Below are positions 12,876 to 55,743 of a stretch of 64,000 nucleotides of DNA, piece by piece; position 1 is the stretch's first letter; the number at the start of each line of letters is the position of its first letter. The translations under genes and the position numbers were made by a program. This DNA comes from Prostheceraeus crozeri (lineage: Eukaryota; Platyhelminthes; Polycladida; Euryleptidae): the NCBI GenBank assembly GCA_907163375.1, contig CAJQUW010001866.1, forward strand, positions 868,001-932,000, read 5' to 3'. The notes beneath the pieces were generated by a model. The model was not told the origin of the DNA, made no database searches, and was given only the letters and a program-made list of their open reading frames with translations.

Positions 12876-14639
12876 TCAGAGCTGCACATCAGAACTGCAT
12901 AGAGAACAAGTAACACTGAAATGTTCCTTGCAAACAAAACGTTTGCACTCCATGCAGCGAGTTTTGCATCTTCTGTCAAGAGCTCTCGGGCAAACAAAAC
13001 GTCTCCCAGAACTCGGAAGTGATGCCACTTGATGGTCAAAAACTGAGGCAGTCGTGTCAGCAATATATCCATACTTCTTTGCAACTGACCTCAATTGTGT
13101 CGTAATTGATTGAAAATTGGTGTCTTTCCATTGCTGAATTCTTTGTCTGATGGCATTCTCAGCCAAATTCTTGCTCATTTGTTCCAGATGAAGGCGTCGT
13201 TGTATTTTTACATTTCTTTTAAGAACGGCAGGATTTTTTTCAGTGAACAACACAAATGAATTATAGGCGGCAGCGTCCAACATAAAAAGGAAACAATTTT
13301 TGGTCCATCTGTTTGTGTACCGACGACAGGAAAATCCGGCAACCAGTTTATCAAAAGTGTCTACTGCACCTTTCGTTTCGTTGTACGCAATGATGATACT
13401 CGGTTTCTTTGCATCATCTCTTTCAACCGACTCGCTGTGATGTTCCGATGAAATGAGAATAACTGCTTTTGACTGATTGGGGACGTAAGAAACAATTGTC
13501 ATTTGATTGTGAAACGCAAACATGGATGAAAATTTTGTTTTTTGCCTCTGTGGTAAGAACGTTGGTGGAATCTCCCCTTTATTCTTTCGCAATGTTCCAA
13601 TATGTGTCATTCCATTCCTCCACAGATTCTCATTCAGCGAAACAGATGAGAAAAAGTTATCGGTTGTTATGCCACGGCCAGTTCTGAAGTATGGTTTTGC
13701 AAGATCAAGTACAACTTCTTCTCCAACATTTTTCGATCTATTTGACGAATGACTTTTCTTTCCAAGATAAGGTGTGACATCCAGCAGATAAGAAGTTTTG
13801 ACGTCGTTGATACAGAAATACTTTATTCCGTATTTAGCAGGCTTACTTGGAAGATATTGCCTGAAACTACACTTTCCTCGAAACGAATATAGTTCTTCAT
13901 CGACACAAAGATGAGAGTATGGTTCGAAAGCTGTTCTTATCTTTGATCGGAAACGGTCGAAAACAAATCGCATTTTGTAAAACTTGTCACAGGAGGTCGC
14001 ATCAGTTCGTCGTTCTTCAATATCATCAAATGTAATGAATTTTGAAATCAGCTTATAACGATCTCTTGAAAGGATTAGTGTGCAGAATTCCATGTAATGA
14101 CATGAATTTGGATTCCATATTTCAGCGATGTCCACGTTCCTTTTCTTTGTAAGTCCGAGAAGAAGGCATACAGAAATATAGCCTTCAAGTTCCTCGAGCG
14201 AAATTTCTTTGGTATCATCTGGAATTCTTTTGTTGGTACAATTGAGAATGAAACGCAGCATGGTCTCGTCCATAATGTAATGAAAAAAGTCGGTTTCATC
14301 TTCACAATCCTTCACAGCGTAAGTTACACTGGGAGACACACGAATGATGTTTTGCCGTCTGAATGCTGATGGTCTTGGAGACTTCGTTTTCCACTCAAAA
14401 TTATTTTTGCCACGAATCAAATCTTCAGTATCATTATCATCTGTTTCAGAATCCGAATTGTTATCACTGTCCAGATAAGATTGATCAATTATGTCTCCTT
14501 CTTCTTCGCCGAATTCACATTCATCACTATCACTCTCTGTTTCACTGGCATGGTCAGAATCTGCGTTTCTCTCGTCATCGTCAGAATTCTCCAGCATCGA
14601 CGCTATGGATGCAGCTGACAATCGTGAACGTGAAGCCAT
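12876..14639 (-). CDS. piggyBac transposase (PGBD-like), apparently intact
   Basis: A 587-residue cut-and-paste transposase if it starts at the Met at 14639 (MASRSRLSAASIASML, the usual piggyBac opening); an in-frame upstream extension to 14732 looks non-coding. The acidic N-terminus (EDLIRG, many Asp/Glu/Ser) is followed by a DDE_Tnp_1_7 core. Catalytic Asp candidates sit in LCVDEELYSFRGK, GITTDNFFSS and NETKGAVDTFDK, the family's DDD triad. The C-terminal 45 residues hold a Cys/His-rich finger (CPRALDRRCKTRCMECKRFVCKEHFSVTCSLC). No stop or frameshift interrupts it. Length, triad and finger are all present, so it may still encode an active enzyme. Confidence 0.93.
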   Translation of the reverse strand: MASRSRLSAASIASMLENSDDDERNADSDHASETESDSDECEFGEEEGDIIDQSYLDSDNNSDSETDDNDTEDLIRGKNNFEWKTKSPRPSAFRRQNIIRVSPSVTYAVKDCEDETDFFHYIMDETMLRFILNCTNKRIPDDTKEISLEELEGYISVCLLLGLTKKRNVDIAEIWNPNSCHYMEFCTLILSRDRYKLISKFITFDDIEERRTDATSCDKFYKMRFVFDRFRSKIRTAFEPYSHLCVDEELYSFRGKCSFRQYLPSKPAKYGIKYFCINDVKTSYLLDVTPYLGKKSHSSNRSKNVGEEVVLDLAKPYFRTGRGITTDNFFSSVSLNENLWRNGMTHIGTLRKNKGEIPPTFLPQRQKTKFSSMFAFHNQMTIVSYVPNQSKAVILISSEHHSESVERDDAKKPSIIIAYNETKGAVDTFDKLVAGFSCRRYTNRWTKNCFLFMLDAAAYNSFVLFTEKNPAVLKRNVKIQRRLHLEQMSKNLAENAIRQRIQQWKDTNFQSITTQLRSVAKKYGYIADTTASVFDHQVASLPSSGRRFVCPRALDRRCKTRCMECKRFVCKEHFSVTCSLCSSDVQL

Positions 14640-14884
14640 AGAAATAATAATTGCAATTGTGAAGGATACAGGCGCGTGAGGTTTGTCGCAAGACGGTGGA
14701 GCTGTGTTCACTATTCGACCAATGGCTTGCAATGTCGCTGCTGCCCAATCGGAGCGAATCTCAATCGGCTCACGTGATATTGTTTCTTTAGAAGTCAGAA
14801 TGAGAGATGAAAAGAAGTACAGTAGATTGACAGCAGCAACACCAATTTTTCAATGGTTCAATGTGAGACAGATATAATAACATA

Positions 14885-25192: not shown

Positions 25193-25552
25193 ATGGCGAA
25201 ACGTAAAATGGCGAAACGCAAAAAGTCTTGAAAGTTTTCTTCAGCCATTCAAGCTCTCCGACGAATGAAAGCAAATCAGCGATACAATGCTATACGACAT
25301 GCCAACGATAAATTCATTCATGAAATTATTTCTCATGTGAGAAAGTTGAGGACGAAGAAATTAGCGCCAAAACAACGAAAGTTACTTAAGCGATACGCTA
25401 CGAAATTGCGTTTCATCTCCAATCCTAAAGTCACCCTTCAAAGAAAGAGGAAAACTCTAACACAAAAGGGCGGTTTCCTTTCAGCAATACTTCCAATGAT
25501 AGCTCCTGCCGTGGGCAACCTATTGGGTAATATCTTTGGCTCTAAGCGTTAA
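25193..25552 (+). pseudogene. Basic protein with hydrophobic C-terminus (protein X-like), one stop
   Basis: The frame opens MAKRKMAKRKKS (a duplicated MAKRK), hits TGA at 25229-25231, and continues to an Arg/Lys-rich helical body (RKLRTKKLAPKQRKLLKRY) and a terminal GGFLSAILPMIAPAVGNLLG segment before GSKR. The basic body plus glycine-rich amphipathic tail is like the small condensing or membrane-active proteins (adenovirus pX/pVI-like) in Polintons and adintoviruses. A reinitiation Met at 25265 would leave 95 residues. It directly precedes the packaging ATPase. Confidence 0.6.
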
Positions 25553-26197
25553 TTATGCAAATGTTGAATCTCAAAGTATTAAAATTGATTTCAGACTTCA
25601 ATGCGATAAAGTTCTGACTGTATCAGGTCCATCTCATGCAGGTAAAACTGTTTTCACGCTGAATTTATTGGATAAAAGAAGGGAGCTGTTTAAGGAACCT
25701 ATCAATCGAGTGATTTGGTGTTATGGTATTTATCAACCGTCGCTGTTTCAGGAATTGCAAAGTCGCAACTTTATTCGACATGAAGGAATTATTCCAGTGG
25801 ATAAACTTCAGTCTAATGATGTTGTTGTATTGGATGATTTATTAAAAGAAAGTAAGAATTCAAAAGATGTTACAGATATGTTCACTCGCGCAGCACACCA
25901 TAAAAGGTGCTTTATCATCTATATCACACAAAATTTGTTTCCTGATGGAAAAGAAGCTCGTACACGAAACCTACACACTATTATGCTATTTTCAACAATC
26001 CGCCGGATAAAAGTCAATTTGAAATTTTAGCGCGACAAGTTGCACCCAGAGGATCAAAAGCCTTAATTGAAATTTTTCAAGCAGCTACTGAAAAACCATA
26101 CGGTTACTTATTCATTGACTTTACGCAAGAGTGTCCGGAAGTATTTAGATTTCGAAGTGATATTTTGAAAACTCCCATGATTATCTACAAACTATGA
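25537..26197 (+). pseudogene. Packaging ATPase (FtsK/HerA, A32-like), frameshifted
   Basis: Walker A is GPSHAGKT, preceded by the strand KVLTVS; Walker B is VVVLDDLL; a sensor-like IYITQNLFPDG follows. All are normal for Polinton packaging ATPases. No ATG lies in frame before the P-loop, so the start is lost or non-canonical. Near 25,995 the frame breaks: the first frame ends at 26,030, while the next frame carries the conserved tail (NPPDKSQFEILARQV ... IDFTQECPEVFRFR) to a TGA at 26195-26197. The stop overlaps the next ATG (ATGA). It is a second, clearly different ATPase from that at 1.6-2.4 kb. Confidence 0.85.
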
Positions 26198-26886
26198 GTT
26201 CTTATTCTCGCATGATTGTTATTCCTCAGGATGAATATGTACAATTGACTGCCATGCAGCAAGTAAAGCAACCTCTTGCAAATCAAATGTATAGGAAAGA
26301 AATAGATTATCAGCAAAATGTTCACATCAAAGATCCACATCGTGCTGTATTATTACAATCGGAAACTGTTGAGCAATTGAAAAACTTGAAGTATAAGATG
26401 CGTGACTCTGTATCGACTGCTACACCTTTAGCATCTCGCGCACATGCCATATCTCTTTTCAACAGTATTGAACCCCATCTCAATGTAAATGATAGAGGAG
26501 AAATCATTACAGATGAAAATAAAGTGATTGATGCTTCACGTTATGAAGACTTGATTCAGTATGCGACACGTAGAAAGCGCCGTCAGGGCTATGTTCCACC
26601 TGGTTGGTCATACTTTCTTAAACTATTGAAAAAGCATAATGTGCCAAAATTTGCTTTAAATAATGAGACATTGAAAGAACTTGATTCAACAGTGGCTACT
26701 GCTCCAATGCTTCAGGCGATGAAAATGCCAACAAATTGGTTTAAGACGTCACCTGCTACATCCCCTCCCACACTCACTAAGCAAACAAGAGGAAGAACTC
26801 GACGTAGATCTACATCACCACTAAAACTAGTAAAAGGAAAACGTAAAACAGCTCCTCCTAGGAAATACATGTTCTCAGACTATTAA
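26194..26886 (+). CDS. Conserved-type Polinton protein of unknown function, 230 aa
   Basis: It starts MSSYSRMIVIPQDEYVQL, overlapping the ATPase stop by ATGA. The N-terminal VIPxxEYxxL phrase recalls a protein often found beside Polinton ATPase and capsid genes. The centre has TRRKRRQGYVPPGWSYFLKLLKKHNVPKFALNN, with a PPGW turn and long helix. The C-terminus is very basic and Ser/Thr/Pro-rich (RGRTRRRSTSPLKLVKGKRK), suggesting nucleic-acid contact or a nuclear signal. Intact. A virion core role is plausible but unproven. Confidence 0.65.
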   Translation: MSSYSRMIVIPQDEYVQLTAMQQVKQPLANQMYRKEIDYQQNVHIKDPHRAVLLQSETVEQLKNLKYKMRDSVSTATPLASRAHAISLFNSIEPHLNVNDRGEIITDENKVIDASRYEDLIQYATRRKRRQGYVPPGWSYFLKLLKKHNVPKFALNNETLKELDSTVATAPMLQAMKMPTNWFKTSPATSPPTLTKQTRGRTRRRSTSPLKLVKGKRKTAPPRKYMFSDY

Positions 26887-26887
26887 T

Positions 26888-27103
26888 ATGAAGCAGATGT
26901 GTTGCTTGCCATGTAATGAGCCGCCAGAGGTGAATGTCGTTGTCACTTGCACTTGCTGCGCCAGCTCTCATAATGAAACCCCTAAGCAATGTGAACACGA
27001 TCGCAAAACCGCTAAAGCTAAATGCTGCAGTTGTTGTAAATGTAGAAAGGCAAGAAAACAAAAAGATGAGAAGGAGGAAAAAGAGTCAGTCGTCATCGAC
27101 TGA
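26888..27103 (+). CDS. Cys-rich basic peptide, 71 aa
   Basis: An ATG two bases after the previous stop opens a small protein with many cysteines (MCCLPC, CTCCASS, CEHD, CCSCCKC) and a Lys/Glu-rich tail (RKQKDEKEEKE). It overlaps the integrase start by 38 bp in another frame. It could be a metal-binding protein; no family recognised. Tight spacing supports it being real, small size argues for caution. Confidence 0.4.
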   Translation: MKQMCCLPCNEPPEVNVVVTCTCCASSHNETPKQCEHDRKTAKAKCCSCCKCRKARKQKDEKEEKESVVID

Positions 27104-28154
27104 ACGTTTGAAGTCAATCTATTATGATGTAAAACATCTGGCAGGATTTGCATCTATCAAGAAATTATTAAAAGCGAGTGGTCTTCCACAATCACAAGTG
27201 AAACGATGGTTAAAGGGTCAGGCTACCTATACACTCCACAAACAAGCGAAAAAGAAGTACCGCACCCGCCATTATATTGTTCATGACATCGATGAACAGT
27301 GGCAAGCAGATTTGTGTGATGTTGCCTCCATTTTAAAACATAACTCGGGCAATAATTTTATTTTAACCGTCATTGATATTTTCTCGCGTTATGCATGGGC
27401 TCAACCTTTAAAAACTAAAGAAGGTAAAGGAGTAGCAAAAGCATTCCAAACAATTTTTCGAGAAGGTCGCATTCCAAAAAGAATTCAGAGTGATCAAGGA
27501 AAAGAGTTTGAAAATCAGCATGTGACAAGATTATTTGAGAGGCATGACATTGAGTTTTTTAGTGTAAAGAGTGCTTATAAAGCTGCACTCGTTGAACGTA
27601 TTAATCGCACATTAAAAAATCGCTTGTGGCGACATTTTACTGCCAACTTGACACAAAATTGGACAAAGGTTCTACAAGATACACTCCATGCCTACAATCA
27701 CTCTATCCATCGTTCTATTGGACTCAGACCAGTAGATGTAAATGCTGACAATGTAGATAAAGTGCGCGAATCATTCCGACGTAAACGCACTCATGTGAAA
27801 AGTGATGTGAAAATTGGTGATAAAGTTCGTATCTCAAAAGTGAAAAGTGTTTTTGCTAAAGGGTACCTTCCGAATTGGACAGAGGAGGTATTTACAGTAT
27901 CAAGGATTAATCAAAAAGACTCTCCGACCACCTACAAGTTGAAAGATTACGATAATGAAGAAATTAAGGGTAGCTTTTACCGCGATGAGATTGAGGTAGT
28001 CACTGAAAGTGAAACATATTTGGTAGAGAAAATCATTCGATGTAAAAAACGGCAAGGTGAAGAATGGTGTCTTGTTAAATGGACTGGTTATCCTTCAAGT
28101 ATGAACTCTTGGATGCGTCGTGCCGACATCTTTCATCTAAGTGATCGACAGTGA
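27066..28154 (+). CDS. Polinton integrase (retrovirus-like DDE) with C-terminal chromodomain
   Basis: The Met at 27066 (MRRRKKSQSS) is the best start, giving 362 residues; an upstream in-frame extension overlaps other genes. An HTH-like N-terminal segment leads into the DDE core: Asp in WQADLCDV (about residue 81), Asp in IQSDQGKEF (about 143) and Glu in LVERINRTLK (about 177), with roughly 33 residues between the last two. The KGYLPNWTEEVFTV block is the usual beta-barrel. The tail YLVEKIIRCKKRQGEEW-CLVKWTGYP is a chromodomain, which reads histone marks and may steer insertion. It is intact, and catalyses the insertion that makes the 6 bp duplication. Confidence 0.95.
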   Translation: MRRRKKSQSSSTERLKSIYYDVKHLAGFASIKKLLKASGLPQSQVKRWLKGQATYTLHKQAKKKYRTRHYIVHDIDEQWQADLCDVASILKHNSGNNFILTVIDIFSRYAWAQPLKTKEGKGVAKAFQTIFREGRIPKRIQSDQGKEFENQHVTRLFERHDIEFFSVKSAYKAALVERINRTLKNRLWRHFTANLTQNWTKVLQDTLHAYNHSIHRSIGLRPVDVNADNVDKVRESFRRKRTHVKSDVKIGDKVRISKVKSVFAKGYLPNWTEEVFTVSRINQKDSPTTYKLKDYDNEEIKGSFYRDEIEVVTESETYLVEKIIRCKKRQGEEWCLVKWTGYPSSMNSWMRRADIFHLSDRQ

Positions 28155-28195
28155 TTCATGCAAAGTTGTAACTAACAATGTTTAGGGTTTGAGCT

Positions 28196-28651
28196 ATGAA
28201 TCCAACTGCCTCATTTTATTCACGACCCTCCTATGTAAGTGGTGGAGGACAAATTTACATCGGCGCTCGCCGCCAACGTGGAGGTAGCGTACTTGGTGCA
28301 CTGAAATCTGTTGTAGCACCTCTCATATCCAATGTCGGTAGATCTTTAAAACGAAATGTTTTAAGTAATGCCGTTGGCTTTGCTGTTGATGTTGTTAGTG
28401 ATCTTTCCAGAGGTAGAAGTTTTAAGAGCAGTTTGTTGAATCGTGGGAAGGAACGCGGTTTAAAAACATTGAAGCAGACCTTTGCTGGTGTTACTCAAGG
28501 AAAGAAATCACCTAAACGAATGAAAAAAGGAAGGAGGAAACATCGCGGAGCTGGTAAGGTGCGATCTTCAGTCAAAAGGCATTCACGCAAACGTCGCAGA
28601 GGCTCTAATCATTCATCAGGCGCTAAACGACGACGCTGCTATAACTTCTAA
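28196..28651 (+). CDS. Basic virion-core protein (pVI/pVII-like), 151 aa
   Basis: The N-terminus has aromatic/Gly-rich YVSGGGQIYIGARRQRGG and then an amphipathic LGALKSVVAPLISNVG segment, like the membrane-active peptide of adenovirus protein VI and its Polinton counterparts. The C-terminal 60 residues are almost all Lys/Arg/Ser/Gly (KRMKKGRRKHRGAGK, RKRRRGSNHSSGAKRRR), suited to DNA condensation. It lies 42 bp after the integrase and 3 bp before the major capsid gene. Intact. Confidence 0.65.
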   Translation: MNPTASFYSRPSYVSGGGQIYIGARRQRGGSVLGALKSVVAPLISNVGRSLKRNVLSNAVGFAVDVVSDLSRGRSFKSSLLNRGKERGLKTLKQTFAGVTQGKKSPKRMKKGRRKHRGAGKVRSSVKRHSRKRRRGSNHSSGAKRRRCYNF

Positions 28652-28653
28652 TC

Positions 28654-29737
28654 ATGGAGTGTAAAACTTCTGGTTTTTGTTTGTTCGATCAACAAGCCAT
28701 ACAGACAGATATTCTTAGTTCAAGTATTGTAGATTATCATCCTCGAACAGCTGAGAATGCTGGCCCCATTGAATTTGTTATTCCTGGTGGTAGTGGTGAC
28801 TACATAGATTTGAGTTATGCGATGCTTGATTTGAGGTATAGAATTCAGCAAGCAGATGGAACTGCTATTGACGATGCACATAAAGTTGGGCTGAACAATT
28901 TACCATTGACTACATTACTTCGTGATGTTTCTCTAACGATTGGAGAGCAGCAGGTGGAAGGTGGTCAAAGCGATTATCCCTATAAATCATATTTCAATCA
29001 TGTATCACAGTTTCATCCAGCAGCACAAAAAAGTCATATGGAAGCCATGGGATGGTACAGAGATGAAGCAGGAAAATTTGATGTTGAAACAAACAGTGGC
29101 TTTGTAAAGCGATCTGCTATGATTAAAGATAGTAGAGTATGTCAGCTATATGGTCCGCTAAATTTAGACTTCTTTAGACAGTCAAAGTTTTTACTCTGTA
29201 ATACCAGCATGCGACTCAAGCTGACATTGAATAAGCCTGAATTTGCGCTAAATGCATTTGCTAGTTGACAATTTTAGAATTCATGTGGAAGATATTGCAC
29301 TTTACATTCGTCGAGTAGTACCGAATCCAAGTGTCATTAGAGGACATGCTGAACGTCTTAACCGCCAAAATGCCATTTACCCCGTTCAGCATACAAAGCT
29401 TCTCACCTTTACAATTCCTAAAGATCAAAAGAGTTTCATGAAAGATGGCCTCTTTCCATCGGAAGCACCGAAGCTCCTCATGGTGGCAATGGTTGAAAAT
29501 GACGCATTTAATGGTAATATAAAGAAGAATCCTTTCAATTTTAAACACAATCAGTTAAGTGAAATTGCTTTACGTGTAAATGGTGTGAGTCATCCTACAT
29601 GCCATAATAAATTTTTATTTCGTATTATCTTTGCTTTCATACTGACTTACTTGAATGGGGCTTCAGTGGATGATTTAACCATGTATACATTTTCATTTGG
29701 AAATAGTAGCACGCTTAGTCTAACTTGTAAATCTTAA
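28654..29737 (+). pseudogene. Polinton major capsid protein (double jelly roll), frameshifted and truncated
   Basis: The first 204 codons carry GPIEFVIPGGSGDYIDL, LDLRYRIQQADGT, LLRDVSLTIGEQQV and SDYPYKSYF, the hallmark order of the Polinton major capsid protein (often annotated like nematode F54H12.2). Near 29,252-29,268 the frame shifts; the other frame continues with VEDIALYIRRVVPNPSV, a lysine/threonine block and NPFNFKHNQLSEIALRVNG, all family signatures. After about 29,610 the family sequence is lost and replaced by a block that recurs in a tandem 205 bp repeat (VDDLTMYTFSFGNSS). The C-terminal third is thus missing or scrambled. Confidence 0.88.
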
Positions 29738-29813
29738 AACATTTCATATGAACGATGATGGTAGATGAAATAGTGTCAAATAAAATTAAGATAGCTTACA
29801 CTTCTGATACAGG
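29666..29813. repeat. First copy of the 205-bp tandem unit, cut by the LTR element
   Basis: Starts GTGGATGATTTAACCATG and ends at CAGG, the LTR element's target duplication. The unit resumes at 42,200 on the other side of the 12.4 kb insertion. Confidence 0.85.
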
Positions 29814-29913
29814 TGTAACCCGGAGGACTCGATCCCCAGCCTTAGGACCCTTAGTGTACAGCAAGCCGGGTCACATTTAGGAACTTGAGCGGGAAGAGAA
29901 ACAAACGAGATGG

Positions 29914-30187
29914 TTACGTAAGATTCCAAACGAACGATATAAAGTGCAAATAAATAAGGAAGGACAGAATAGGACAGAACAGTAAAAGTGGCGCCATTCG
30001 GGAAACATAAATTACCATTCCAGGCGCCGGGGCATGATCAGATCCGTGGGAGACCAGAGCGCGTAGAAGAGTGTTACGTAATACTGGAATTGAAAAGCGA
30101 TATTTCCCAGAACTATCAAAAGAGACCGCCGTAATTGACGAGATCGGTTTCGTGAGAAACAAATAAGCAAGGGACTGTGTTACGTAA
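29914..30187 (+). promoter_or_regulatory. U3 cluster of TTACGTAA (bZIP-type) sites
   Basis: Perfect palindromes TTACGTAA occur at 29914-29921, 30074-30081 and 30180-30187. TTACGTAA is the classical site of PAR/C-EBP-related bZIP factors. Two of the three lie at the same place in the 62 bp direct repeat, as duplicated enhancers do in retroelement U3 regions. Confidence 0.55.
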
Positions 30188-30323
30188 TACTGAAATTGAA
30201 AAGCGATCGTTCCCAGAGCTATCAAAGGAGACCGCCGTAAGTGCCCCATTAAATAAATAATAGTCAGGAAAGGAATTCGAAGCGCATGGGGGCAGGCGGC
30301 AGCGGATCAAAGTCTAAGAACAG

Positions 30324-30330
30324 TATATAA
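30324..30330 (+). promoter_or_regulatory. LTR TATA box
   Basis: TATATAA upstream of GCGAGGCTC; transcription probably starts about 30 bp downstream. The same box is in the 3' LTR at about 41,631. Confidence 0.65.
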
Positions 30331-30893
30331 GCGAGGCTCAAAACAGCAACCGTATAACAAGAACAATCGACGATCTGTGTACGCACAGCAGTAGATCCGC
30401 TAGCCGATCAAGAGACCAAGACAACTACGACCCGACCGGACGAGAGAGTGAGTATAACGATAGCTAAAGGCAGGCGTAAGGTTCGAAGGCCCTAGACCGA
30501 CCTAGAAAGATCGCGCCGAGAGGCCCTGATAGTAGCTAGACGTACCGCAGAGGCTCGAAGCACTATACGTCTCCGTTTGTTACTCTTCCCACTAAACTAC
30601 CTGTGAGGCTGAAGCTATTTTTCTCTCCCTCTATTCGTATTTCTCTCTCCCTCTATTTGTATCTCTATCTTCCTCTATTTGCACGTATTGTTAATTTATG
30701 ATTGATTTATGTGAATGATTGATAAAGGCAATTATATTTACGTATTGATCAGAGTTGTTCTGTATTCGGGCTCGACTGAGGATCGTTAGGATCGAGTAGA
30801 AACCAGAGTGCTAACCAAAATAAGTGATCAAGTAACCTGTAAGCGAAGAGAAACGCGCAAAACGAAAATAAAGACCTACCAGAGGGGCTACAC

Positions 30894-30905
30894 TGGAGGT
30901 CCCAC
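30894..30905 (+). promoter_or_regulatory. Primer-binding site (tRNA-Gln-like)
   Basis: TGGAGGTCCCAC starts one base after the 5' LTR. TGG complements the CCA end of a tRNA, and the 12 bases look like the glutamine-tRNA type site used by some retroviruses. Comparison with host tRNA-Gln genes would settle it. Confidence 0.6.
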
Positions 30906-30964
30906 AAACTGAACTAACCGAGCCCAGAATACTTACTCGATCTAAGACAAGAAAAGTGAAGACT

Positions 30965-31900
30965 ATGACTTCCGACATAGCAGACGCCTTGAAAGCATTG
31001 ACAGTGAAACTTGAGAAAATTCCGAATAATCCACCACGAATGATTCCACCGACTTCAGGCAATTTCTCTATCCCGGTTTTCTCCGGAGATCTTGACGATA
31101 CTGATATCAGCTTCGCTGAATTTGTTGAGTATTTTGATTTAGTTGCTCGAGCATTAAACTGGGACGATACCCAGAAGACGAATACACTACCCGCATACTT
31201 GAAAGCCCACGCACTTGAGACTTATCGACAGCTATCTACAACCACTCAGAATAATTATCGATCACTGATTAGTGAACTTAGCCAGAAGCTGCAGCCGCCA
31301 GAGACTCAAAGGGCCGCCTGTGCAGCTCTGAATTCCAGGAAACAAGGGAGAGAGGAATCAATTTCATCTTATTCTAGTGCTATCAGACGGCTAGCCAGGC
31401 GGGCGTATCCCTCGCTGGATGAAGCAACGCGCTCACTATTGACTAGAGAGGTTTTTGTTAACGGGCTCCGCCGTGATTATAAAAAAGCCGTTATACAGAA
31501 AGACCCTCCTAGTCTCGAAGAAACGATTGCTTACGCCCAAAAACTCTACTCTCAGAGAGACCTACTTTTTAGCGACGATTCGGTTGACAATAGCCGATTT
31601 GTGGCAGCCATCACCGAACAGATAGGTACCTTAACGAACGCAATTAACAACATCAATACTCGGGAGCCTATGCGGCCTCCCAGAGCGACTTACCCGGCCA
31701 AGTCCCCTCCGCCTAGACGTCAACAATGGTCTTCTTATCCGATGACCCGGAGATGGACTCAAACTGGCCAACCGATCTGCTTAAATTGTCAATGCCCTGG
31801 GCACTTTGCTAGAGAGTGTAGACGCGCACAATCGGTTCGTTTCGAAACCGAGCAGCGCTCTAACAGACGATATCCGGATAATTATTTATCGAATCAGCGA
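30965..31900 (+). other. Gag region of the LTR polyprotein
   Basis: The capsid-like part has FSIPVFSGDLDDTDISFAEF and a helical ALNSRKQGREESISSYSSAI-R segment typical of Gypsy gag. A single CX2CX4HX4C knuckle (CLNCQCPGHFAREC, about 31,776-31,817) would bind RNA. The next 300 residues are low-complexity and acidic, without recognisable domains. Confidence 0.85.
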
Positions 31901-32839
31901 AATAGGCCTTATAGAGAGGCGAATAATCAGCAGTATCAGCCACAGATGCCTGTGGAGCGGTCAGCACCTCTTATGTCCTCATACGGCAGAGTCCCATTTA
32001 CGACACCTTCTTTTTCCCAGGATCAGTCTTCCCGAATCCCGTTAGGTCGTAACATACGGAGAAGTGCTTATTCCGAGCCAGCACGAAATGCGAGTATTAG
32101 TACTGATGTGGACCTCGAACGGCGTTTTCTAGATAGGGACCCGGACGTTTTGGTAGCGACGATTGAACCCTCAGCTATCGACGCGCGAATATTTACACAC
32201 TACACCCTGCCATCTATTGTCTCAAACACTGCTGAAACAGATCCGACACATGACGAACAATACAGTCATGCCAATGAGATCGGAACAGTTGAGGAGACTC
32301 CTAGAGACGTCGAAGATACTATCACCGACCAAGAGAAAGTCGACGACAATATTGATAACACAGATATGGAGTCCGGAGTCTTTCCTCGTACGTCCTTCCT
32401 ACCAAACGACGAGATCGTTCGCGCAGATGCACACGCGGCCGATATCTTTCCTTATGCATCGTTTTCACCATGCGACGGCGACGCTGACTACTTCGACACC
32501 GCGTCGGATGTGACTGTACAATCAGACGACGAGGTGACAAGTCCCGAAGTCCATCGGGACCTGCAGCATCATACGATGGAAATCGGAGCGCCGAAGGCGG
32601 ACTCGACCGACGATCAAATTATCTGCAGCGTCGCAACGAATACCAGGAACGATCTTACGACTGCGTCGAACGGACCCGAACTCGTGGTAAGTACTGCCGG
32701 GCAAGGGACGGTACGGAGAACCAAGATTCATGAAGACCTTGTTAGCGCCGACAGCTATGCTAAAGTCAAGAAATTCTACTATGAAAAATTGCTTAGCTTT
32801 CGTACAACGTTTGACGAAGGAAAAATTAGGATTCCTTAT

Positions 32840-34760
32840 TCAAAACGATTAGCTACGCTTTCCATCCTCATTCTCCTGCCTATTATCGTTTTTGCAACAG
32901 GAGAGGTACAGACCTATCCCCTCCCTATGATGTGTCAGCAGACAGCAGGTCGTATAGTTTGGCGTTTGCCTCGGAACCATGAGTGTAAAACAACGGGCCA
33001 ACTAAAAGGCCAAGTGCCAATAGCAAAAGCTTATGTTCTGTACAAACCTAATCTACTCGAATATAAGTCATCTGGGTACCATTGCGTAAAGATAAGAAAA
33101 ACTTTTAAAACTCTCACGTTTTTCTTTGGAGACGAACGGCGGTTAAAAACAAATGTGGAACATTTAACGGTTACGCGCGGAGAATGTAAGACTATGATAG
33201 ATAGAAAGGAATGCTCAGTAGGAAAGTTGAAACAAGTTAAAAGCCTATGGTCGACCAATTATCCATATACCTACACGTACCCTAAGGCGCCATTTTATTG
33301 CTGCTATTGGAAAACAACTGTTATTACCAATTGCTACCTTATACCTATTCAGGTATATAAACGCCACCAAGCAGAACATATGGAGTCAACCGGCGGTAAT
33401 GTCAATTCATGCTCATATCGGACAGGCCACTGTCAGCTACCTGATAAATCATACATGTACTGGGTGACTGAAAAGGAAGAAGCCTGCAAGTTCAAACGAT
33501 GGAAACGGATGGACGGACACGAAATGAATGACCGATGGCTATCACTAACCGGAGAAATGGCATTGACTTTCCCCAAACAAAGAAAAACTTTCCACAACTG
33601 TGATGGCACATTATACATATCGGACCAAGGGATCTATGTAGTCGATGTCATAGGAGGAGAAAAATCCTTTCACTTTCCTCGCCTTAACCTAACAAAGGCT
33701 CAAACAAACTCGGAAAACAAGAAAAGTTATAAAAAGCGCAGTAAACGAACGGTCACTTCAGCGGAAGTGGTGGCATCACAGTTGCAGGCCCTTCAAACGA
33801 CCCTAACAAACTATGTTAAATTTGCATTCGATACAGCGCTTATGTCAGTGTGTCATAATTACCGCAGCTCATTAAATATCCTCCGTTCAGCAGTAGTTTC
33901 ACACCCGACGCTCGTCGCCCGATCGATGCTGAATCATAAGTATATTCATGCTCGATCCACAACCGAATACATAGAAATTTGGCCATGCTCTCCAATAACG
34001 AATTACACAATAGAATCTATGAAAAACAAATGCACAGTTTGGCTACCATTAAAATTTAATTTACATGGTTACGTCAAAACCGGATATATGGATCCTCTCA
34101 CAAATATTGTACATCAGAGCTCCGCATTACAGCAGTGTCATGACGCTATTGATATTCCTTTCTGCGCCAATGAGTCATGCTTTAATTACGAACCAAGTGG
34201 TGCCATACATAAATTGCATAGCAGACACCCATTCCCGATGTTCCAATTCAATTGGACTACTGTTCCCAAAACACCACATATGATTATTCACGCTATGGGA
34301 ATGTATAATTGGACGGAAGTCTTTACAACAAAAAGCCAGAATAACCTACTGAGTACATTGTCTCAACAACAAATGATTTTACATGAACTGGGAGTCCAAT
34401 CGGACTCGAAGCCTGAAGCCGTAGCGAAACAATTCGTCAACTCTATTACTGAGAAAGCGTCACTAAGCTTCTTGCTCGGATTCCGAATCAACATGCGAGA
34501 GCTATGGGTATTTCTGGTATGTGTAGCTGTCACCATATACATTGTGTACCTGGCAGGACTCTGTCTATGGCCACGCATGCGATTTTGCCTTGCATGTGCT
34601 TCAGCAGATTACTTCACTTTTCGACGACCTATCATAGCGACAGTCAACCGACGGAACAGCACTAACTCTCAATCGCTACCACAAAGAAGTACAGCTGAAG
34701 AGGGAGCGTCGGCCTCAGCCCCCCCTCTTCCCCCACCTTACGAGCTAGATGATTTACCTG
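32840..34760 (+). other. Envelope-like glycoprotein region between gag and protease
   Basis: A hydrophobic segment ATLSILILLPIIVFATG (about residues 630-646) looks like a signal peptide. A Cys-rich ectodomain with several N-x-S/T sites follows, then a furin-type site RSKR at 925-928, a long helical part and further Cys pairs, and a transmembrane span (WVFLVCVAVTIYIVYLAGL, about 1180-1200). The order resembles class III fusion glycoproteins of the gB/chuvirus kind more than the baculovirus-F-like env of insect gypsy, but this is a visual judgement. The tail carries PLPPPYEL, a PPxY late-domain-like motif, before the protease. No stop interrupts this region. Confidence 0.68.
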
Positions 34761-34889
34761 GCATAACTGAGCTTACTTCACTGACAAAGGACACGCGGAA
34801 TGCACTCGAACGTTGGCCGATTAATTACTCGGATCCAGCGCCTGAGGAGTTAGTAGCCGCCTGTCGCGGTCAAAATAAGTCCGTACTTA

Positions 34890-36349
34890 CAATAAAAGTG
34901 GATGATCATAGTGCTGAAGCCTTAATTGATACAGGCTCCTCCGTAACATTATTGAGCGATACTTTCGCACGCAGAATTGACCTACAATGGGCACCGACTG
35001 ACCTAAAAGCCTCTGGAGTCGACGGCAATCAACTCCCGATTATCGGAAGAGCACAAGTACAGATTGAGATCGGACCGAGAAAACTTCAGCAGAAGGTGGT
35101 GATTATGGAAAAATCTCCTTTCAATGTTATTCTTGGAGTCGATTTTTTGACGAAACTTGGCCCACTTACCATAGACTATGTCAATAAAAATGTTGACATC
35201 ACAACACCGGTACCCTCCGTGTGTCATGTATACATTACGGATCAAACGACGGTACCCCCTCGCGCAGAAGTCTGCATTCCTGGAACTTTGAGCACCCGAA
35301 TTCCACAAGAACCTGTCATGTTCGAGCCCTGTCGACCAAGCAACCCTTTCCTTCGCTTCGCGTCAAGTGTCGGATTACCATCGGAATCCAAAATACCCTT
35401 AAGGGTCTTAAATATCTCTAATGAACCAATCACAATCGCTGAAGGAACTAAGATAGGCGAGGCAGAACCCTGCGAGACATCTATAGCGACTGAAGAGATA
35501 AGAGATCCACTGCAGCGGGACTCTTTCCTTTCAATGTTTTCACTCCCCGCACAGCTTAACATCTTTCAACGGAAGTGCTTAGAAGATCTTTTATACTCTT
35601 TCCAGGACACTTTTTCACAACATGAGTACGACCTTGGACTGATGCCAGGTGTTGAACATGATATTTTTACCTCTGACCACCCACCGGTTCGTCAAAAGGC
35701 GTATCGAATTCCGGAAAGACAGAAACCGATCCTCCGAGAACACCTTGACAAAATGATACAGGCAGGAGTGATAGAACCTTCAGCTAGTCCATTTGCTAGC
35801 CCCATAGTGCTAGTGCGGAAGAAGGATGGATCCACTAGATTCTGCGTTGATTTTAGAAAATTAAACGCCATAACAAGCAAGGATTATTTTCCCCTACCGC
35901 GAATCGATGAAACGGCTAATAGCCTCAGCCACGCAAAATTTTTCTCTACGCTCGATCTTTTCTCCGGTTACTGGCAAATCAAAGTTGGGGAGACATCCAA
36001 GCCCAAGACATGTTTTACGACATGTTATGGCACGTTTCAATTTACACGACTGCCCTTCGGATTATGCAACGCACCCGCTACCTTTCAGCGAGCTATGGAA
36101 GTGGTCCTCAGCGGGCTCCAGAACCAAACATGTTTAGTTTATCTCGACGATATCATAATATATTCAACAACATTCGAACAGCACTTGCGAGACATTGCTG
36201 AAGTTTTAACGAGAGTAAAAGAGTATGGACTGAAGCTTAAACCTACGAAATGCGAATTTATGCACGAATCGGTCAGATTTTTGGGCCATATAATTTCAGC
36301 AGAAGGAATGCGCCCAGACCCAGCTAATACGGACAAAGTGAAAAATTAA
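34890..36349 (+). other. Protease and reverse transcriptase region
   Basis: The aspartic protease has LIDTGSSVTLLS and the flap/ILGVDFL block. The RT has FCVDFRKLNAIT, FSTLDLFSGYWQI, LPFGLCNAPATFQ and YLDDIIIYS, standard Gypsy/Metaviridae signatures with all catalytic Asp present. The region closes with the LGHIIS block and ends at the TAA at 36347-36349. Confidence 0.93.
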
Positions 36350-37861
36350 CCCACGCCTACATCTGTTAAGCAAATACGACAATTCGTCGGACTAGCATCG
36401 TACTACCGGCGATTCATTCCAAATTTCGCGAAGTTGGCAGACCCGCTAACTCAACTGCAAAGGAAAGATGCCACCTTCGCTTTGGGCACTGAGCAGGAGC
36501 AAGCATTCCAGATGCTAAAACTAAGACTGATTACTCCTCCTATTCTGGCTTTTCCAGACTTTGACAGACCATTTACCCTCCAAACGGACGCTAGCAATGT
36601 TGCAATAGGCGCTGTGTTGTCACAGGGTACTAAAGCCGAGGAGCACCCCATAGCATATGCTAGTAGATCTCTTAACAAATGTGAACGTAACTATGCCACT
36701 ATCGAACAAGAAGCGCTAGCTATTGTTTGGGCATGCGAGCATTTCCGATGTTACTTATGGGGGAAACCATTCGACGTAGTCACTGACCACGGGCCCCTAA
36801 AATGGCTGTTTACACATCGCAACCCTTCCTCACGATTGATTAGATGGGCATTGCGCCTCCAAGAATTCGATATGACAATATCATACCGACCAGGGAGGCA
36901 TAATAATGCCGACGCTCTGTCGCGGATCGAGACTGGAGAGGCGCAAGAACATGTCCATAACATCCGAGCAGTATCAGATTTAGGGAACGTTCGGACTGCT
37001 CAAGCAGCCGACCCCCTCTTGGCCGCGCTGATGCAAAAGCTCAGGGGCCTCAGACCTAATGTAACCGAATTGTCCGCCACCGAGAAATTAATTGTTCGAA
37101 ATCATTTTGATACATTTAGGATTCGTCAAGACGCGTTGTACAAGCTGTCAGATGCTAATAAGTTCATGTTGGTTCTACCGCCGCCCTACCGCCAGGACAT
37201 TTATAACGAGTTCCACGAAGGAATATTTGGCGGTCATCTGGCGACCGAGAAGACGTTATCTAGACTTCAGAAGTTTTACTACTGGCCAGGTATGAAACGG
37301 GACGTTCAGCAATGGATTGCTGACTGCCCGTCGTGTAACGCGAGGAACAACCCTCAGACGAAGATAAAAGTCCCACTGCATACTATTGCAGTACCCCCGC
37401 CGTTCACTCGCTTTGGAGTGGACGTTACGGGAGCTTATCCGAAAACGGACCGAGGAAATCGCTACATAATTGTTTTTGTGGAATACGCAACAAAATGGGT
37501 AGAGGCTTTCGCCACACCCAACCAGACAGCCGAAACAATCGCTAGGCTGTTCATCGACGAGATAGTATGCAGATTCGGCTGTCCGCGCGAATTATTATCG
37601 GACAGAGGAGCGAACTTCACGAGTTCTCTGCTAAAGAACATATGCCGACTGACGAATACTCAGAAAATTTTCACCCTATCCTACAACCCCAAATGTGATG
37701 GACTGGTGGAGCGGATGAACGGCGTTTTGATACGAATGCTCTCTCACTACTGTGCAGCAAATCAGAAAGACTGGGACCTCTACATCGCGCCCGTTTTATT
37801 CGCCTACCGGGCAAGTGTTCATGGATCGACAAAGGAGAGCCCGTATTATCTTGTGTTCTGA
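36350..37861 (+). other. RNase H and integrase region, between the two stops
   Basis: In the same frame as the upstream part. RNase H: LQTDASNVAIGAVLSQ, RNYATIEQEALAIVWA and VVTDHGPLKWL. Integrase: an H2C2 zinc part (GGHLATEKTLSRL ... DCPSCN) and the core Asp/Asp/Glu in FGVDVTGAY, LLSDRGANF and GLVERMNG. Ends at TGA 37859-37861, after ESPYYLVF. Confidence 0.92.
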
Positions 37862-38923
37862 CGTGACCCTTTACTACCTTGTGACATTGTCTTACAAGAC
37901 CCACCGGCGGACAACGAACTCAGGTCGTATCGACACGAGCTGGGAGAACGACTACGCACAGCGTGGGCCGTTGCTAGAGACAATAACGTACAAGCTCAGG
38001 CCCATCAGAAGGAGATGTACGATCGGACCGCAACGGATACCCTCCAGCATATTGCTATCGGCGATCGGGTCTATGTACATACACCTCAACCGAAAAAGTG
38101 TCTATCCCCAAAACTACAGAAGCTTTGGAAGGGTCCATTCCGAATTCTGGATATGACGGACACAACCCTTCTGGTCACTCCGGTAAACCAACCATCTCTA
38201 AAACGACAATGGGTGAATATTAACCGGTGCAAAATGGCCCTTACCGCACACACGCCGGCTTTCCCACCTTCATCGGATTCTACAGCGCTGAATACAGAAC
38301 CGGTACAAGTCGAGGATAGTCAGGAACCAGAGATCTCGAACGAACCTACGACAGTTTTGACGGAAGAAGAAGAACGCAGCCACCCAATTCAGGAAGAATC
38401 TACAACGTCCTCAAGGGAATCACCCACCCCGCCCACGACATCAACCGGAGCGGTCGCGGAGGAATCTCTCGGCGATAGCGTCCAGGAACCAGCACCGCTT
38501 GGACGAACGGAACCGACAGATATGCCGAAGCCAGTGGACTCCAACGAGAACGCCAGTCCACCCGCGGCAGGACGAGAACCGTCGGAACCGTCGGACCAAC
38601 CGGCTCAAAAGACTGAGAACGCTCGTGACGCGGATCCGCCCACGGGCAAGAAAACAACCTCCGATAAACGTGGACCACCAAAGGATTTGTTACCTGCGAG
38701 TGGAACTGGACAGACCTCCTCAGTCCCCACACGACGCCGTGAGCGGCCACGCAAACAACAGGCGGATCAAGCAGCACCACAAGCTATCAACTCGCCCGAG
38801 CCTGTAGCGGAGGCCATGTCACCCACAAGGAGAATGACAAGGAGCCAACTCCGTGCTTTTCTTCATCAGCAAAAACAACGCATGGCGCGGGGCGCCACGG
38901 GTGAGCAAGGCGTGAAGCCGTAA
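37862..38923 (+). other. Polyprotein C-terminus: GPY/F-like barrel and Pro-rich tail
   Basis: Same frame after the TGA. LWKGPFRILDMTDTTLLVTP is the small barrel that follows integrase cores (GPY/F type). The last 230 residues are rich in Pro, Glu, Thr and Ser with RRRERPRKQQ and RRMTRSQLRAF patches, and no known fold. Confidence 0.8.
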
Positions 38924-39551
<628 letters not shown>

Positions 39552-41028
39552 ATGTCAATATCCTTTCACATTTTAGTGACCTCAGGCAAATCTTTATTGT
39601 TAGCCACGGAGGGAACCTTTGACGAGGACACAGCCCTGCCGGCCCGACGCAGTGACACGGGCGTGGTGGAAGTCGCCGTCGCCGTCGTCAACAATCAATA
39701 CCAGCTGTTGGCGACGTTCCACAGTTTCCTAAGGCCGGAGGGAAGCACCCGCGCCCTGGGACCACGACAACCACACGGCCTGAGGGCAAGCTTTCTAACA
39801 TTCCAACCAACCCTGCGGGGCATAGAGCCCTCCCTCAGCGCTTTCCTTCAGGCCAACGGACCGCTGACGTCCATCTACGCGGCGCGACCGCGCGATCGAG
39901 GCATGTGCCATCGGCTATCAGCAACTCGCCACCTGACCGTGCGGTTGATTTCCGGACAATACCAGCACTACTGTCAGGGGCCGTGCATCAGGGCACACCG
40001 TCGGCCGGGGAGGGTCACTTGTGCCCTCCAGACGGTGAGGGCCATGGCCTTAGCCCTCCAGGTGAGTGACCCGGTTCGCCCTATTCCTCGTTCCCTCACT
40101 ACCCCCAGCTTACCACCGGTTACACCCGAGGCCGACCCAACCCCCATAGCCGACTCATTCGTCATCTTAGTAGATGGCAATGAGTTGGACGGTTGGGACT
40201 CGGACCCACAAACCGAGGAACCCCTCCCCAGTCCTTCCCCCCCACTTTCCCACCCTCAACCCAACAGAACACCCGTTACCGGCCTAGCTCCACCATACCC
40301 CGAGCCCATTACTAATGCCATCCAACCCCAATTGTCCCCTCGGTTGGGCGTCGACACGCCTTACCCCATCATGGGCCACAACCGAGACGTTGTCCTTTCC
40401 CTTGCCCGATACCTCTCCACCTTCTCCGACATCCTCCCACTTCCCCAATTTTCTGTCCGTTTCGGCCCTTTCCTTCGTGAACTCTTCACCCCTTACACCC
40501 TTATTTTTGATACCCTCTACGCCCTAGCCCCTCACTTCCAGCACCGTTCCCAATTATGGCGGGGAATCCTCGAGCGCATCCAGCACGTTTTCAACGCCAA
40601 GTGCTGGGTTGCTCGAGTCCCCGACCCGTTCGCCTTTCCCACCCCCCCCCCCATTGATATTAGTAATTACGACCCAACCCTCCTCCCCATATGAATCGTC
40701 CCCACAATTTTTGAATTACCATACCCCTTTCACCGCCCGGAACCCTGTACTTCTCCCCCATTCTGATCGCGCTGTCCATCGACTCCTTGCCTGGTCCCAC
40801 CTATTCCGAGCAGTTATTCTGCAACTCCCCGATAATCTCCCCTTTGCCCTTTTGAGCGCCGTTGTAGAGCCCCTCGATTCTCGGTTCCCGCATCTTCCCC
40901 GCCTGCTACTCCTCCAATACCCACCCGATAACCCCCATACCCTGACCCGTGCCCTCCGCCTCGTCCGTCGGCCGTACGGCCTGGGGCCGCTTCTTAACGG
41001 TTTCCCCACGGAAGAGGCCATTTGCTAA
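39552..41028 (+). CDS. Accessory 3' ORF of the LTR element, possible degenerate DEDDh fold
   Basis: The first 380 codons (39552-40694) start MSISFHILVTSGKSLLLATEG. A block VVEVAVAVVNNQYQLLATFHSFLRP, then HGL, is laid out like the ExoI strands of DnaQ-family exonucleases, and CALQTVRAMALAL is like their last helix, but the metal-binding acids are not at the expected places. A Pro-rich linker and a hydrophobic helical C-terminal part follow. After the run of C near 40,640 another frame stays open to 41028 with the same base composition (HRLLAWSHLFRAVILQLP), so a slip at the C-run is likely. It sits where env usually lies. I recognise no family with confidence. Confidence 0.5.
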
Positions 41029-41120
41029 ACTATAATAGATCATACCATGTCCCGACTGTATGATCCCCTCCCTTGAGCTCCAACCGCGAGGACGCGGCTC
41101 TTTCTCGTCCCCGGTAGGAG

Positions 41121-42199
41121 TGTAACCCGGAGGACTCGATCCCCAGCCTTAGGACCCTTAGTGTACAGCAAGCCGGGTCACATTTAGGAACTTGAGCGGG
41201 AAGAGAAACAAACGAGATGGTTACGTAAGATTCCAAACGAACGATATAAAGTGCAAATAAATAAGGAAGGACAGAATAGGACAGAACAGTAAAAGTGGCG
41301 CCATTCGGGAAACATAAATTACCATTCCAGGCGCCGGGGCATGATCAGATCCGTAGGAGACCAGAGCGCGTAGAAGAGTGTTACGTAATACTGGAATTGA
41401 AAAGCGATATTTCCCAGAACTATCAAAAGAGACCGCCGTAATTGACGAGATCGGTTTCGTGAGAAACAAATAAGCAAGGGACTGTGTTACGTAATACTGA
41501 AATTGAAAAGCGATCGTTCCCAGAGCTATCAAAGGAGACCGCCGTAAGTGCCCCATTAAATAAATAATAGTCAGGAAAGGAATTCGAAGCGCATGGGGGC
41601 AGGCGGCAGCGGATCAAAGTCTAAGAACAGTATATAAGCGAGGCTCAAAACAGCAACCGTATAACAAGAACAGTCGACGATCTGTGTACGCACAGCAGTA
41701 GATCCGCTAGCCGATCAAGAGACCAAGACAACTACGACCCGACCGGACGAGAGAGTGAGTATAACGATATCTAAAGGCAGGCGTAAGGTCCGAAGGCCCT
41801 AGACCGACCTAGAAAGATCGCGCCGAGAGGCCCTGATAGTAGCTAGACGTACCGCAGAGGCTCGAAGCACTATACGTCTCCGTTTGTTACTCTTCCCACT
41901 AAACTACCTGTGAGGCTGAAGCTATTTTTCTCTCCCTCTATTCGTATTTCTCTCTCCCTCTATTTGTATCTCTATCTTCCTCTATTTGCACGTATTGTTA
42001 ATTTATGATTGATTTATGTGAATGATTGATAAAGGCAATTATATTTACGTATTGATCAGAGTTGTTCTGTATTCGGGCTCGACTGAGGATCGTTAGGATC
42101 GAGTAGAAACCAGAGTGCTAACCAAAATAAGTGATCAAGTAACCTGTAAGCGAAGAGAAACGCGCAAAACGAAAATAAAGACCTACCAGAGGGGTTACA
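41121..42199 (+). repeat. 3' LTR
   Basis: Same length as the 5' LTR (1,079 bp), begins TGTAACCCGGAGG and ends GGGGTTACA. I count about five substitutions (for example G/A in CCGTRGGAG, A/G in AACARTCGACG, C/T in the last ten bases). Confidence 0.96.
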
Positions 42200-42661
42200 C
42201 AGGGATAGCAATCGACTGTGATCCATGTGTAAAGAGCTTGTTAGACTACGGATGGGCTTAAGTGGATGATTTAACCATGTATACATTTTCATTTGGAAAT
42301 AGTAGCACGCTTAGTCTAACTTGTAAATCTTAAAACATTTCATATGGATGATGATGGTAGATGAAATAGTGTCAAATAAATTAAGATAGCTTACACTTCT
42401 GATATAGGGATAGCAATCGACTGCGATCCATGTGTAAAGAGCTTGTTAGACTACGGATGGGCTTAAGTGGATGATTTAACCATGTATACTTTTTCATTTG
42501 GAAATAGTAGCACGCTTAGTCTAACTTGTAAATCTTAAAACATTTCATATGGACGATGATCATAGATGAAATAGTGTCAAATAAAATTAAGATAGCTTAC
42601 ACTTCTGATACAGGGATAGCAATCGACTGCGATCCATGTGTAAAGAGCTTGTTAGACTACG
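42200..42661. repeat. Remaining copies of the 205-bp tandem unit
   Basis: The interrupted first copy ends here, followed by two more starting at 42,262 and 42,467 (period 205 bp), the last one ending near GACTACGGA at 42,661. Each unit holds VDDLTMYTFSFGNSS-type and MVDEIVSNKIKIAYTSDTG-type short frames, with stops between them. A stray fragment GGGATAGCAATCGACTGC lies at 43,505. Confidence 0.88.
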
Positions 42662-42774
42662 GAAGAGAGAAGTGTGTTATGTTGCGTGTGGCGCGTGAGT
42701 GTCCTCCCATTTCATTCCATTCATCAATTCGTCTCATTGATAGAGACAGGTAGAACTCATGGTTCTCATAACGT

Positions 42775-55060: not shown

Positions 55061-55743
55061 CCGACATCGAAGGAATACAGCAGTTTGAGGAAGCGATGTC
55101 GTCAATCACTCCCGTCAAATGCTATCAGTTTCATAATCGATTTCTTATTTACACATATAAATTTCTGATTAAAGAGGACATTATTGATAAGTATAGGCTA
55201 CCCAAAAAATTGCAGTTCATTACTTCACAGATGTATTGTCACGCAATTGTTCTCCCGTATCGCAATAGATTTGGTGAAATGGAAAATTGTGCGAGCGTAC
55301 ATTATAAAGCTTGGAATGTGCGACCTATCACTAAGAATGGAATAATAAAGATATCTGCCTATCATGAGACTAACATAGAACATAAGCATTACATCCACAA
55401 TGTCTATCCGCTGAAATCAGTTGCGACATTTATTTTGCAGTTTGTGTCAATAGTTAATGGAAAAGGTAGAACTGATGTCCGAATGCAATTATTTGAATTT
55501 CAACTGAAGAAAGCAGTTGTAGACACCGGATGTTGAAGAAGAAAAAAGTCATTGAATTTTCTTATTTGCTATAACCACCTACTGCATTCAATATTTAACT
55601 TGAACTTAAATCTATCAACCATCAATTTACAGGATGACCGCCAACAGGAGGTTCTTCATACTTGAGTTGATGCTAAAAACAGCTTTCGTCTCTCCTTGAA
55701 ATTTATTGACCAGATTAAAATAGATAATTAAAAGATATGTACA

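What the first reader, a model, noticed from the sequence alone, without database searches (positions are those of the whole stretch)
30965..38923. Envelope-like glycoprotein fused between Gag and Pol in a single frame
Standard retroelements place env after pol and express it from a spliced RNA. Here a signal-peptide-like segment, Cys-rich ectodomain, furin-type RSKR, transmembrane span and PPxY tail sit in frame between the Gag knuckle and the protease. The order gag-env-pro-RT-RH-IN is seen directly, with no stop or frameshift across the joins. Either the element makes its envelope as a polyprotein domain, released by signal peptidase, furin and its own protease, or splicing and internal initiation are used in ways not visible.
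Basis: partly seen in the sequence, partly recalled or inferred. Interest (0 to 1): 0.9.

Follow-up and report, generated by a model that had tools for sequence, protein, structure and literature searches.

The report
Envelope fused between Gag and Pol
An animal retrovirus-like element, and a lineage of its relatives in the same genome, carries an envelope-type membrane-fusion gene in the middle of one long Gag-Envelope-Pol reading frame instead of after it, which points to an unusual way of building a virus particle.

Summary
Window 29814-42199 is a young Ty3/Gypsy-type LTR element. Gag, an envelope-like glycoprotein, protease and RT share one stop-free frame (30965-36346); RNase H and integrase continue in phase after two stops (36347, 37859). 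It is not one odd copy: the 2.05-Gb genome gives 69 scored envelope match rows, 31-100% identical. In 9 of 30 fetched loci Gag-Env-PR-RT is one open frame; in three families (Env 31-47% identical to the window's) one frame of 2307-2729 codons runs on through integrase. Relatives match the class III Monjiviricetes_fusion profile (best 3e-13); the window copy alone does not. A furin site (13 of 14 rows), two membrane segments and, in nearer families, late-domain motifs in the tail are kept. Env is under purifying selection; Env-bearing RTs form one branch (100/99). Env only downstream of Pol: 0 of 88 places. Against: many copies are broken; Gag-Env is in frame in 15 of 26 readable loci and Env-PR in 21 of 28, the 7 others all in the window's own family, at one single-base run. 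Best explanation: Env is an internal, membrane-threading domain of a Gag-Env-Pol polyprotein; expression is inferred and splicing not excluded. An eLife survey of Env-carrying Gypsy elements could not be read.

The parts
29814..30892 (+). 5' LTR (TGTAACC...GGCTACA), 1079 bp
   Evidence: 5 mismatches against 3' LTR; TSD CAGG at 29810-29813
30965..31900 (+). Gag: capsid (Retrotrans_gag) and one CCHC knuckle at 31778
   Evidence: (PF03732 3.8e-5; PF00098 0.019, below cut-off)
31901..32797 (+). low-conservation linker, in frame
   Evidence: no Pfam match; dN/dS 0.62-0.67 in three pairs
32798..34705 (+). envelope-like class III fusion glycoprotein: signal-like segment 32852-32908, furin-type RSKR 33737-33748, TM 34508-34564
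   Evidence: PF24664 in relatives, not in this copy
34706..34800 (+). cytosolic tail with PPPY late-domain-like motif 34730-34741
34890..35251 (+). aspartic protease (LIDTGS at 34922)
   Evidence: PF13975 6.6e-13
35252..35701 (+). PR-RT linker, weakly dUTPase-like
   Evidence: PF04797 4.6e-5, below curated cut-off
35702..36346 (+). reverse transcriptase
   Evidence: PF00078 3.2e-38
36347..36349 (+). in-phase stop of this copy
36434..37858 (+). RNase H and integrase (H2C2, rve)
37859..37861 (+). second in-phase stop of this copy
38015..38923 (+). integrase C-terminal part and Pro-rich tail
   Evidence: MLVIN_C 0.0035, below cut-off; first part homologous in L059-L061
39552..40694 (+). separate 3' ORF of unknown function; relative after IN in the C1541 family, where a weak exonuclease match appears
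41121..42199 (+). 3' LTR; TSD CAGG at 42200-42203

Best explanation
The window holds one copy of a Ty3/Gypsy-type endogenous retrovirus lineage in which a chuvirus-like class III fusion glycoprotein is an internal domain of a single Gag-Env-PR-RT-RNaseH-IN polyprotein. Shown: the order, the one frame in this copy and in diverged families, selection on env, and one branch of env-bearing RTs. Inferred: the ribosome translates straight through; the segment before the ectodomain acts as an internal signal sequence (Gag stays cytosolic), signal peptidase and furin cut on the lumenal side, the TM segment returns the chain to the cytosol so that PR-RT-IN stay inside, late-domain motifs in the tail recruit ESCRT, and the element's own protease later frees Gag, Env and Pol.
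For: Stop-free Gag-Env-PR-RT in 9 of 30 loci, from 6 families; one frame Gag to IN in C12938, C1541 and C136, the last a 7th family whose Gag is recognised by its NC match only. Linker and tail indels 7 of 7 in phase in three pairs. env dN/dS 0.19, 0.14, 0.32. Net positive charge before the signal-like core and after the TM in 13 of 13 rows, 18-21 ectodomain Cys. PPxY or P[ST]AP in the tail in 17 of 17 tails of the nearer families (about 7 families, many near copies), 2-12% each by shuffles. Nearest upstream in-frame Met at 92, 92, 21, 14, 35, 2, 43, 2, 15 residues in 9 loci, so no conserved start. Outside the window's family Env-PR is in frame in 17 of 17 readable loci. Env and PR-RT trees agree but for one local swap. 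The 14 ENV RTs are one side of a branch, 100/99. Fused Env in one Gag-Pol-Env polyprotein is known in Atlas virus, PMC9094657 (passages).
Against: No RNA or protein data. A 1:1:1 Gag:Env:Pol ratio would be unusual. Gag-Env is in frame in only 15 of 26 readable loci; out: L013, L015, L018, L023, L024, L030, L032, L034, L036, L037, L038; most have an in-frame relative (L009/L012, L022 or L035), L036 and L038 are unresolved. In the window's family 7 of 11 rows have Env and PR in different frames, by length differences of one single-base run in the tail: decay, sequencing error, or a real slippage site. The linker is weakly constrained (dN/dS 0.62-0.67). The lumenal side of the TM is also positively charged. 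C136 has no late-domain motif (0 of 1) and the first Met of its open frame lies inside a capsid-like part (by eye). L025-L027 has one out-of-phase indel near the end of the piece and PR-RT dN/dS 0.89.
Confidence: 0.6

Rival explanations
1. The unspliced RNA is Gag-Env-Pol, but alternative splicing makes separate products: env removed as an in-frame intron to give Gag-Pol, and/or a spliced mRNA joining a Gag start to Env, as for CERV of Cer1.
For: In-frame blocks would keep phase too. The window has a strong acceptor-like site at 32021 and a donor-like site at 32687. Cer1 makes a spliced product that joins Gag peptides to a 3' ORF (PMC10309623, passages).
Against: With a rough matrix (recalled, not trained on this host) no acceptor of score 9 or more lies at the env start in the six loci scanned, and 4 of 6 have none in the held stretch. 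The scan is weak evidence.
Confidence: 0.25
2. Slippage (ribosomal or polymerase) at the single-base run in the tail sets how much Env-terminated and how much Env-Pol product is made, at least in the window's family.
For: All length differences between Env and PR among the rows of the window's family aligned, apart from one in L018, fall in one run; 7 of 11 rows are out of frame there.
Against: Single-base runs also mutate and misread easily; other families are in frame in 17 of 17 readable loci. It modifies rather than replaces the polyprotein model.
Confidence: 0.05
3. Env is translated by internal initiation from a Met before the signal-like segment.
For: A Met lies 2 residues upstream in C1015 and C12942.
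Against: The distance varies from 2 to 92 residues in 9 loci; the frame upstream would not need to stay open.
Confidence: 0.06
4. A chance chimera or assembly artefact in one copy.
For: The window copy has two stops.
Against: 69 scored match rows on many contigs, diverged to 31%; same order in the loci where both sides could be read.
Confidence: 0.01
5. The inserted part is a cellular membrane protein or a non-fusion accessory glycoprotein.
For: The window copy alone matches nothing in Pfam, nothing scored in the protein search (and profile 62); the fold could not be modelled.
Against: PF24664 Monjiviricetes_fusion in 6 of 9 and 6 of 8 members, collinear over up to about 250 residues.
Confidence: 0.03

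Closest known systems
Ty3/Gypsy elements (Metaviridae), incl. Errantivirus
   Same: LTRs, 4-bp TSD, gag with CCHC, PR-RT-RH-IN order
   Different: ICTV profile PMC7879559 (whole text read) says Env, where present, is encoded downstream of integrase; here it is between Gag and PR. Insect Gypsy ERV Env is F-type, related to baculoviruses (PMC12992720, passages).
Atlas virus of hookworm (Belpaoviridae)
   Same: Env is part of one stop-free polyprotein (2828 residues)
   Different: Order Gag-Pol-Env, class II phlebovirus-like Env, BEL/Pao pol (PMC9094657, passages)
Anakin of mosquitoes (BEL/Pao with chuvirus glycoprotein)
   Same: Chuvirus-type glycoprotein captured by an LTR element
   Different: BEL/Pao pol; the position of the glycoprotein in Anakin was not found in the passages seen (PMC7642597)
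Env-carrying Gypsy elements of insects and other metazoans
   Same: Gypsy elements with type III fusion glycoproteins are mentioned (PMC13172572, passages)
   Different: [quoted passage not shown] the survey behind it (Chary and Hayashi 2025) is not held and was not read
Cer1 of C. elegans
   Same: Gypsy/Ty3 element whose extra protein shares Gag sequence
   Different: The extra ORF (CERV) lies after pol, the protein is nuclear and made from a spliced mRNA (PMC10309623, passages and abstract)

Membership tests
Ty3/Gypsy (Metaviridae) | two LTRs with TG...CA and short TSD | tested here: met
Ty3/Gypsy (Metaviridae) | gag with CCHC, then PR-RT-RH-IN in this order | tested here: met
Ty3/Gypsy (Metaviridae) | RT phylogeny within Metaviridae | not tested
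   trees hold only rows of this genome
Ty3/Gypsy (Metaviridae) | env, where present, downstream of integrase | tested here: not met
   env upstream of PR-RT in 56 of 88 rows and in 9 of 12 more; downstream only in 0 of 88
Errantivirus | baculovirus F-type env as third ORF | tested here: not met
   best Pfam matches of relatives are Monjiviricetes_fusion, and env lies before PR
Monjiviricetes/chuvirus class III fusion glycoprotein | sequence profile match above curated score | tested here: met
   relatives L020, L022, L038, L063, L068 above 27 bits; L025, L035, L064, L066, L067, L069 match below it; L065, L070 and the window copy do not match
Monjiviricetes/chuvirus class III fusion glycoprotein | class III fold | tested here: inconclusive
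   single-sequence model, mean pLDDT 33
Belpaoviridae with fused env (Atlas) | env C-terminal in Gag-Pol-Env | tested here: not met
Infectious retrovirus | enveloped particles, transmission | not testable with these tools
   sequence only

The most novel reading that the evidence does not exclude
A retroelement lineage whose particles are built from a Gag-Env-Pol chain that is threaded twice through the membrane: Env's membrane segments, not an N-terminal Gag signal, anchor Gag and Pol at the budding site, and the late domains sit in the Env tail, so that entry protein, capsid and enzymes are co-packaged by covalent linkage.
Probability: 0.38. Interest if true: 0.88.

Novelty: new variant of a known kind. 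Interest (0 to 1): 0.75.

Why it matters
The ICTV profile of Metaviridae places Env downstream of integrase (PMC7879559). A lineage with Env inside the polyprotein shows another way for a retrotransposon to become virus-like, perhaps without a spliced env mRNA, and makes testable how Gag is targeted to membranes and how an internal entry protein is released. It is also a case of a class III-type glycoprotein that has stayed linked to one Gypsy pol lineage through long divergence.

Tried and rejected
Env homologues in the protein collection: none scored; in IMG/VR: none confirmed. PDB by sequence: best were weak glycoprotein B matches (E 0.096 and 0.11), with unrelated proteins next. AlphaFold from the window sequence alone: mean pLDDT 33, not used for a fold search. 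One search used three query pieces in a wrong frame and is replaced. Splice-site scan: inconclusive, matrix recalled. NCBIfam: nothing for 2 members. Host not named: a COX1 search did not complete. Genome-wide count of the 3' ORF did not complete. Literature: 10 searches; no title or abstract start in the listings pointed to Env between Gag and PR, and searches returned 0 papers; only open-licence PMC papers are searched.

Full report
The element. Window 29814-42199 is bounded by LTRs of 1079 bp that differ at 5 positions and by a CAGG target duplication. It sits in repeated DNA; the same flank without the element is seen at about 42404-42663. The LTR start has 56 matches in the genome with up to 2 mismatches, 0 for the reversed control. 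Pfam finds gag, CCHC (below cut-off), protease, RT, RNase H and integrase in the usual Ty3/Gypsy order.

The frame. The phase of 30965 is open for 1794 codons, to 36346, where shuffles give about 94 stops; the frame then has two stops of this copy (36347, 37859) and ends at 38921.

The lineage. The envelope piece matches the own genome in 69 scored rows (275 candidates): 12 rows from the window copy and near copies at 88-100%, one at 65%, the rest at 31-48%. In 30 fetched loci (L009 is the window; L018 and L019 are one element), with about 1.5 kb on each side, 9 are stop-free from Gag to RT: L009, L012, L020, L021, L022, L025, L026, L027, L035; the others are broken, truncated, shifted in frame or lack a readable side. 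In C12938 (2729 codons), C1541 (2502) and C136 (2307; Env 31% identical; Gag recognised by its NC match only) the frame continues through RT, RNase H, integrase and its C-terminus.

The joins, counted over all 30 loci. Gag and Env are in the same frame in 15 of 26 readable loci, Env and PR in 21 of 28. The 7 Env-PR exceptions (L010, L011, L013-L017) are all near copies of the window; in the tail alignment of ten rows of that family the length differences fall in one single-base run, apart from one in L018. In the other families Env-PR is in frame in 17 of 17. The exceptions look like decay or misreading of a run, but a real slippage site is possible.

What Env is. Alone, the window copy matches no profile. 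Of 9 aligned members 6 match PF24664 Monjiviricetes_fusion, best 3.2e-13; of 8 further members 6, best 1.3e-12; Glycoprotein_B and Rhabdo_glycop_FD match weakly, all but one (L026, Rhabdo_glycop_FD) below cut-off in the members shown singly. In 14 aligned rows 13 have R-x-[KR]-R in the middle of the protein, in L065 and L066 inside an insertion; L068 has not (in part by eye). I read this as a class III fusion protein of the chuvirus kind; the fold itself was not obtained.

Selection. NG86 dN/dS for env was 0.19 (L009-L012), 0.14 (L020-L021) and 0.32 (L025-L027); for the Gag-Env linker 0.67, 0.62 and 0.66; for PR-RT 0.145, 0.10 and 0.89. Only L020-L021 is diverged enough (dS 0.34 in env) to weigh much. 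Indels in linker and tail: 7 of 7 in phase; over the whole held stretches 10 of 11, the exception being 1 base near the end of a piece. These pairs were chosen because they are open, so they show that the joins can drift in phase, not how often copies break.

Topology and budding. In 13 of 13 rows the residues before the first hydrophobic core carry net positive charge, and so do those after the TM, though the lumenal flank of the TM is positive too; ectodomains are 512-527 residues with 18-21 Cys. The tail between TM and protease has PPxY or P[ST]AP in 17 of 17 tails of the nearer families, not in C136; linkers have one in 1 of 9. That these motifs act as late domains is inference from retroviruses. 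Gag of the window starts MTSD and so lacks the glycine needed for myristoylation (rule recalled), which fits an anchor through Env but does not show it.

Origin. Of 91 PR-RT rows 88 were compared with the env list; 56 have env upstream, 0 only downstream, 32 none listed (C13791 is counted as none only because its two matches overlap by slightly more than the margin; the env list itself is capped). Twelve of the 32 were fetched: 9 have env (two of them, L045 and L046, only its last part), 3 (C2108, C14154, C13534; 38-39% identical) have none upstream or in 3.6-5 kb beyond RT. C13349, another relative, has CCHC about 1 kb before RT and no env match. In an RT tree of 26 rows the 14 Env-bearing rows are one side of a branch, 100/99; nine rows were of unknown Env state and only one of them (C13349) was checked. 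Env and PR-RT trees agree except that C1015/C12942 and C12938/C1586 swap places. The simplest reading is one capture of a chuvirus-like gene between Gag and protease, followed by joint descent.

Novelty. ICTV places Env downstream of integrase (PMC7879559, whole text). A fused Env is known from Atlas virus, at the C-terminus (PMC9094657, passages). [quoted passage not shown] The survey that paper cites, Chary and Hayashi 2025, was not held. I therefore file this as a new variant of a known kind: the internal fused Env is the new point, not Env capture.

Noticed in passing
window 39552-40694: Separate ORF between integrase and 3' LTR; a relative at 23-24% lies in the same place in the C1541 family (L060 2938-4296), where a weak RNase_T exonuclease match appears (E 0.038). 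DEDDy-type exonuclease ORF3s are known in rotifer LTR elements (PMC5408684, passages). Function unknown.
   Followed up: partly
window tail of env, about 34710-34800: Single-base run whose length differs among copies of the window's family, so that Env and PR lie in different frames in 7 of 11 rows.
   Followed up: partly
window 25265-29737: Maverick/Polinton-like gene cluster: integrase with chromodomain at 26934-28154 and a weak adenovirus pX-like match at 25265 by Pfam, probable ATPase and capsid genes by eye; the LTR element lies just downstream of it.
   Followed up: partly
window 1623-2390: Poxvirus A32-like ATPase (PF04665, 5.8e-5), perhaps another Polinton remnant.
   Followed up: no
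window 12876-14732: Transposase matching DDE_Tnp_1_7 (5.4e-70), piggyBac-type by recall.
   Followed up: no
window 55655-58134: 2.48 kb near-perfect palindrome, 98% identical to its own reverse complement.
   Followed up: no
window 62963-64000: dense array of diverged repeats at the window's end.
   Followed up: no
window 35252-35701: PR-RT linker matches a herpesvirus dUTPase profile weakly (PF04797, 4.6e-5, below cut-off).
   Followed up: no
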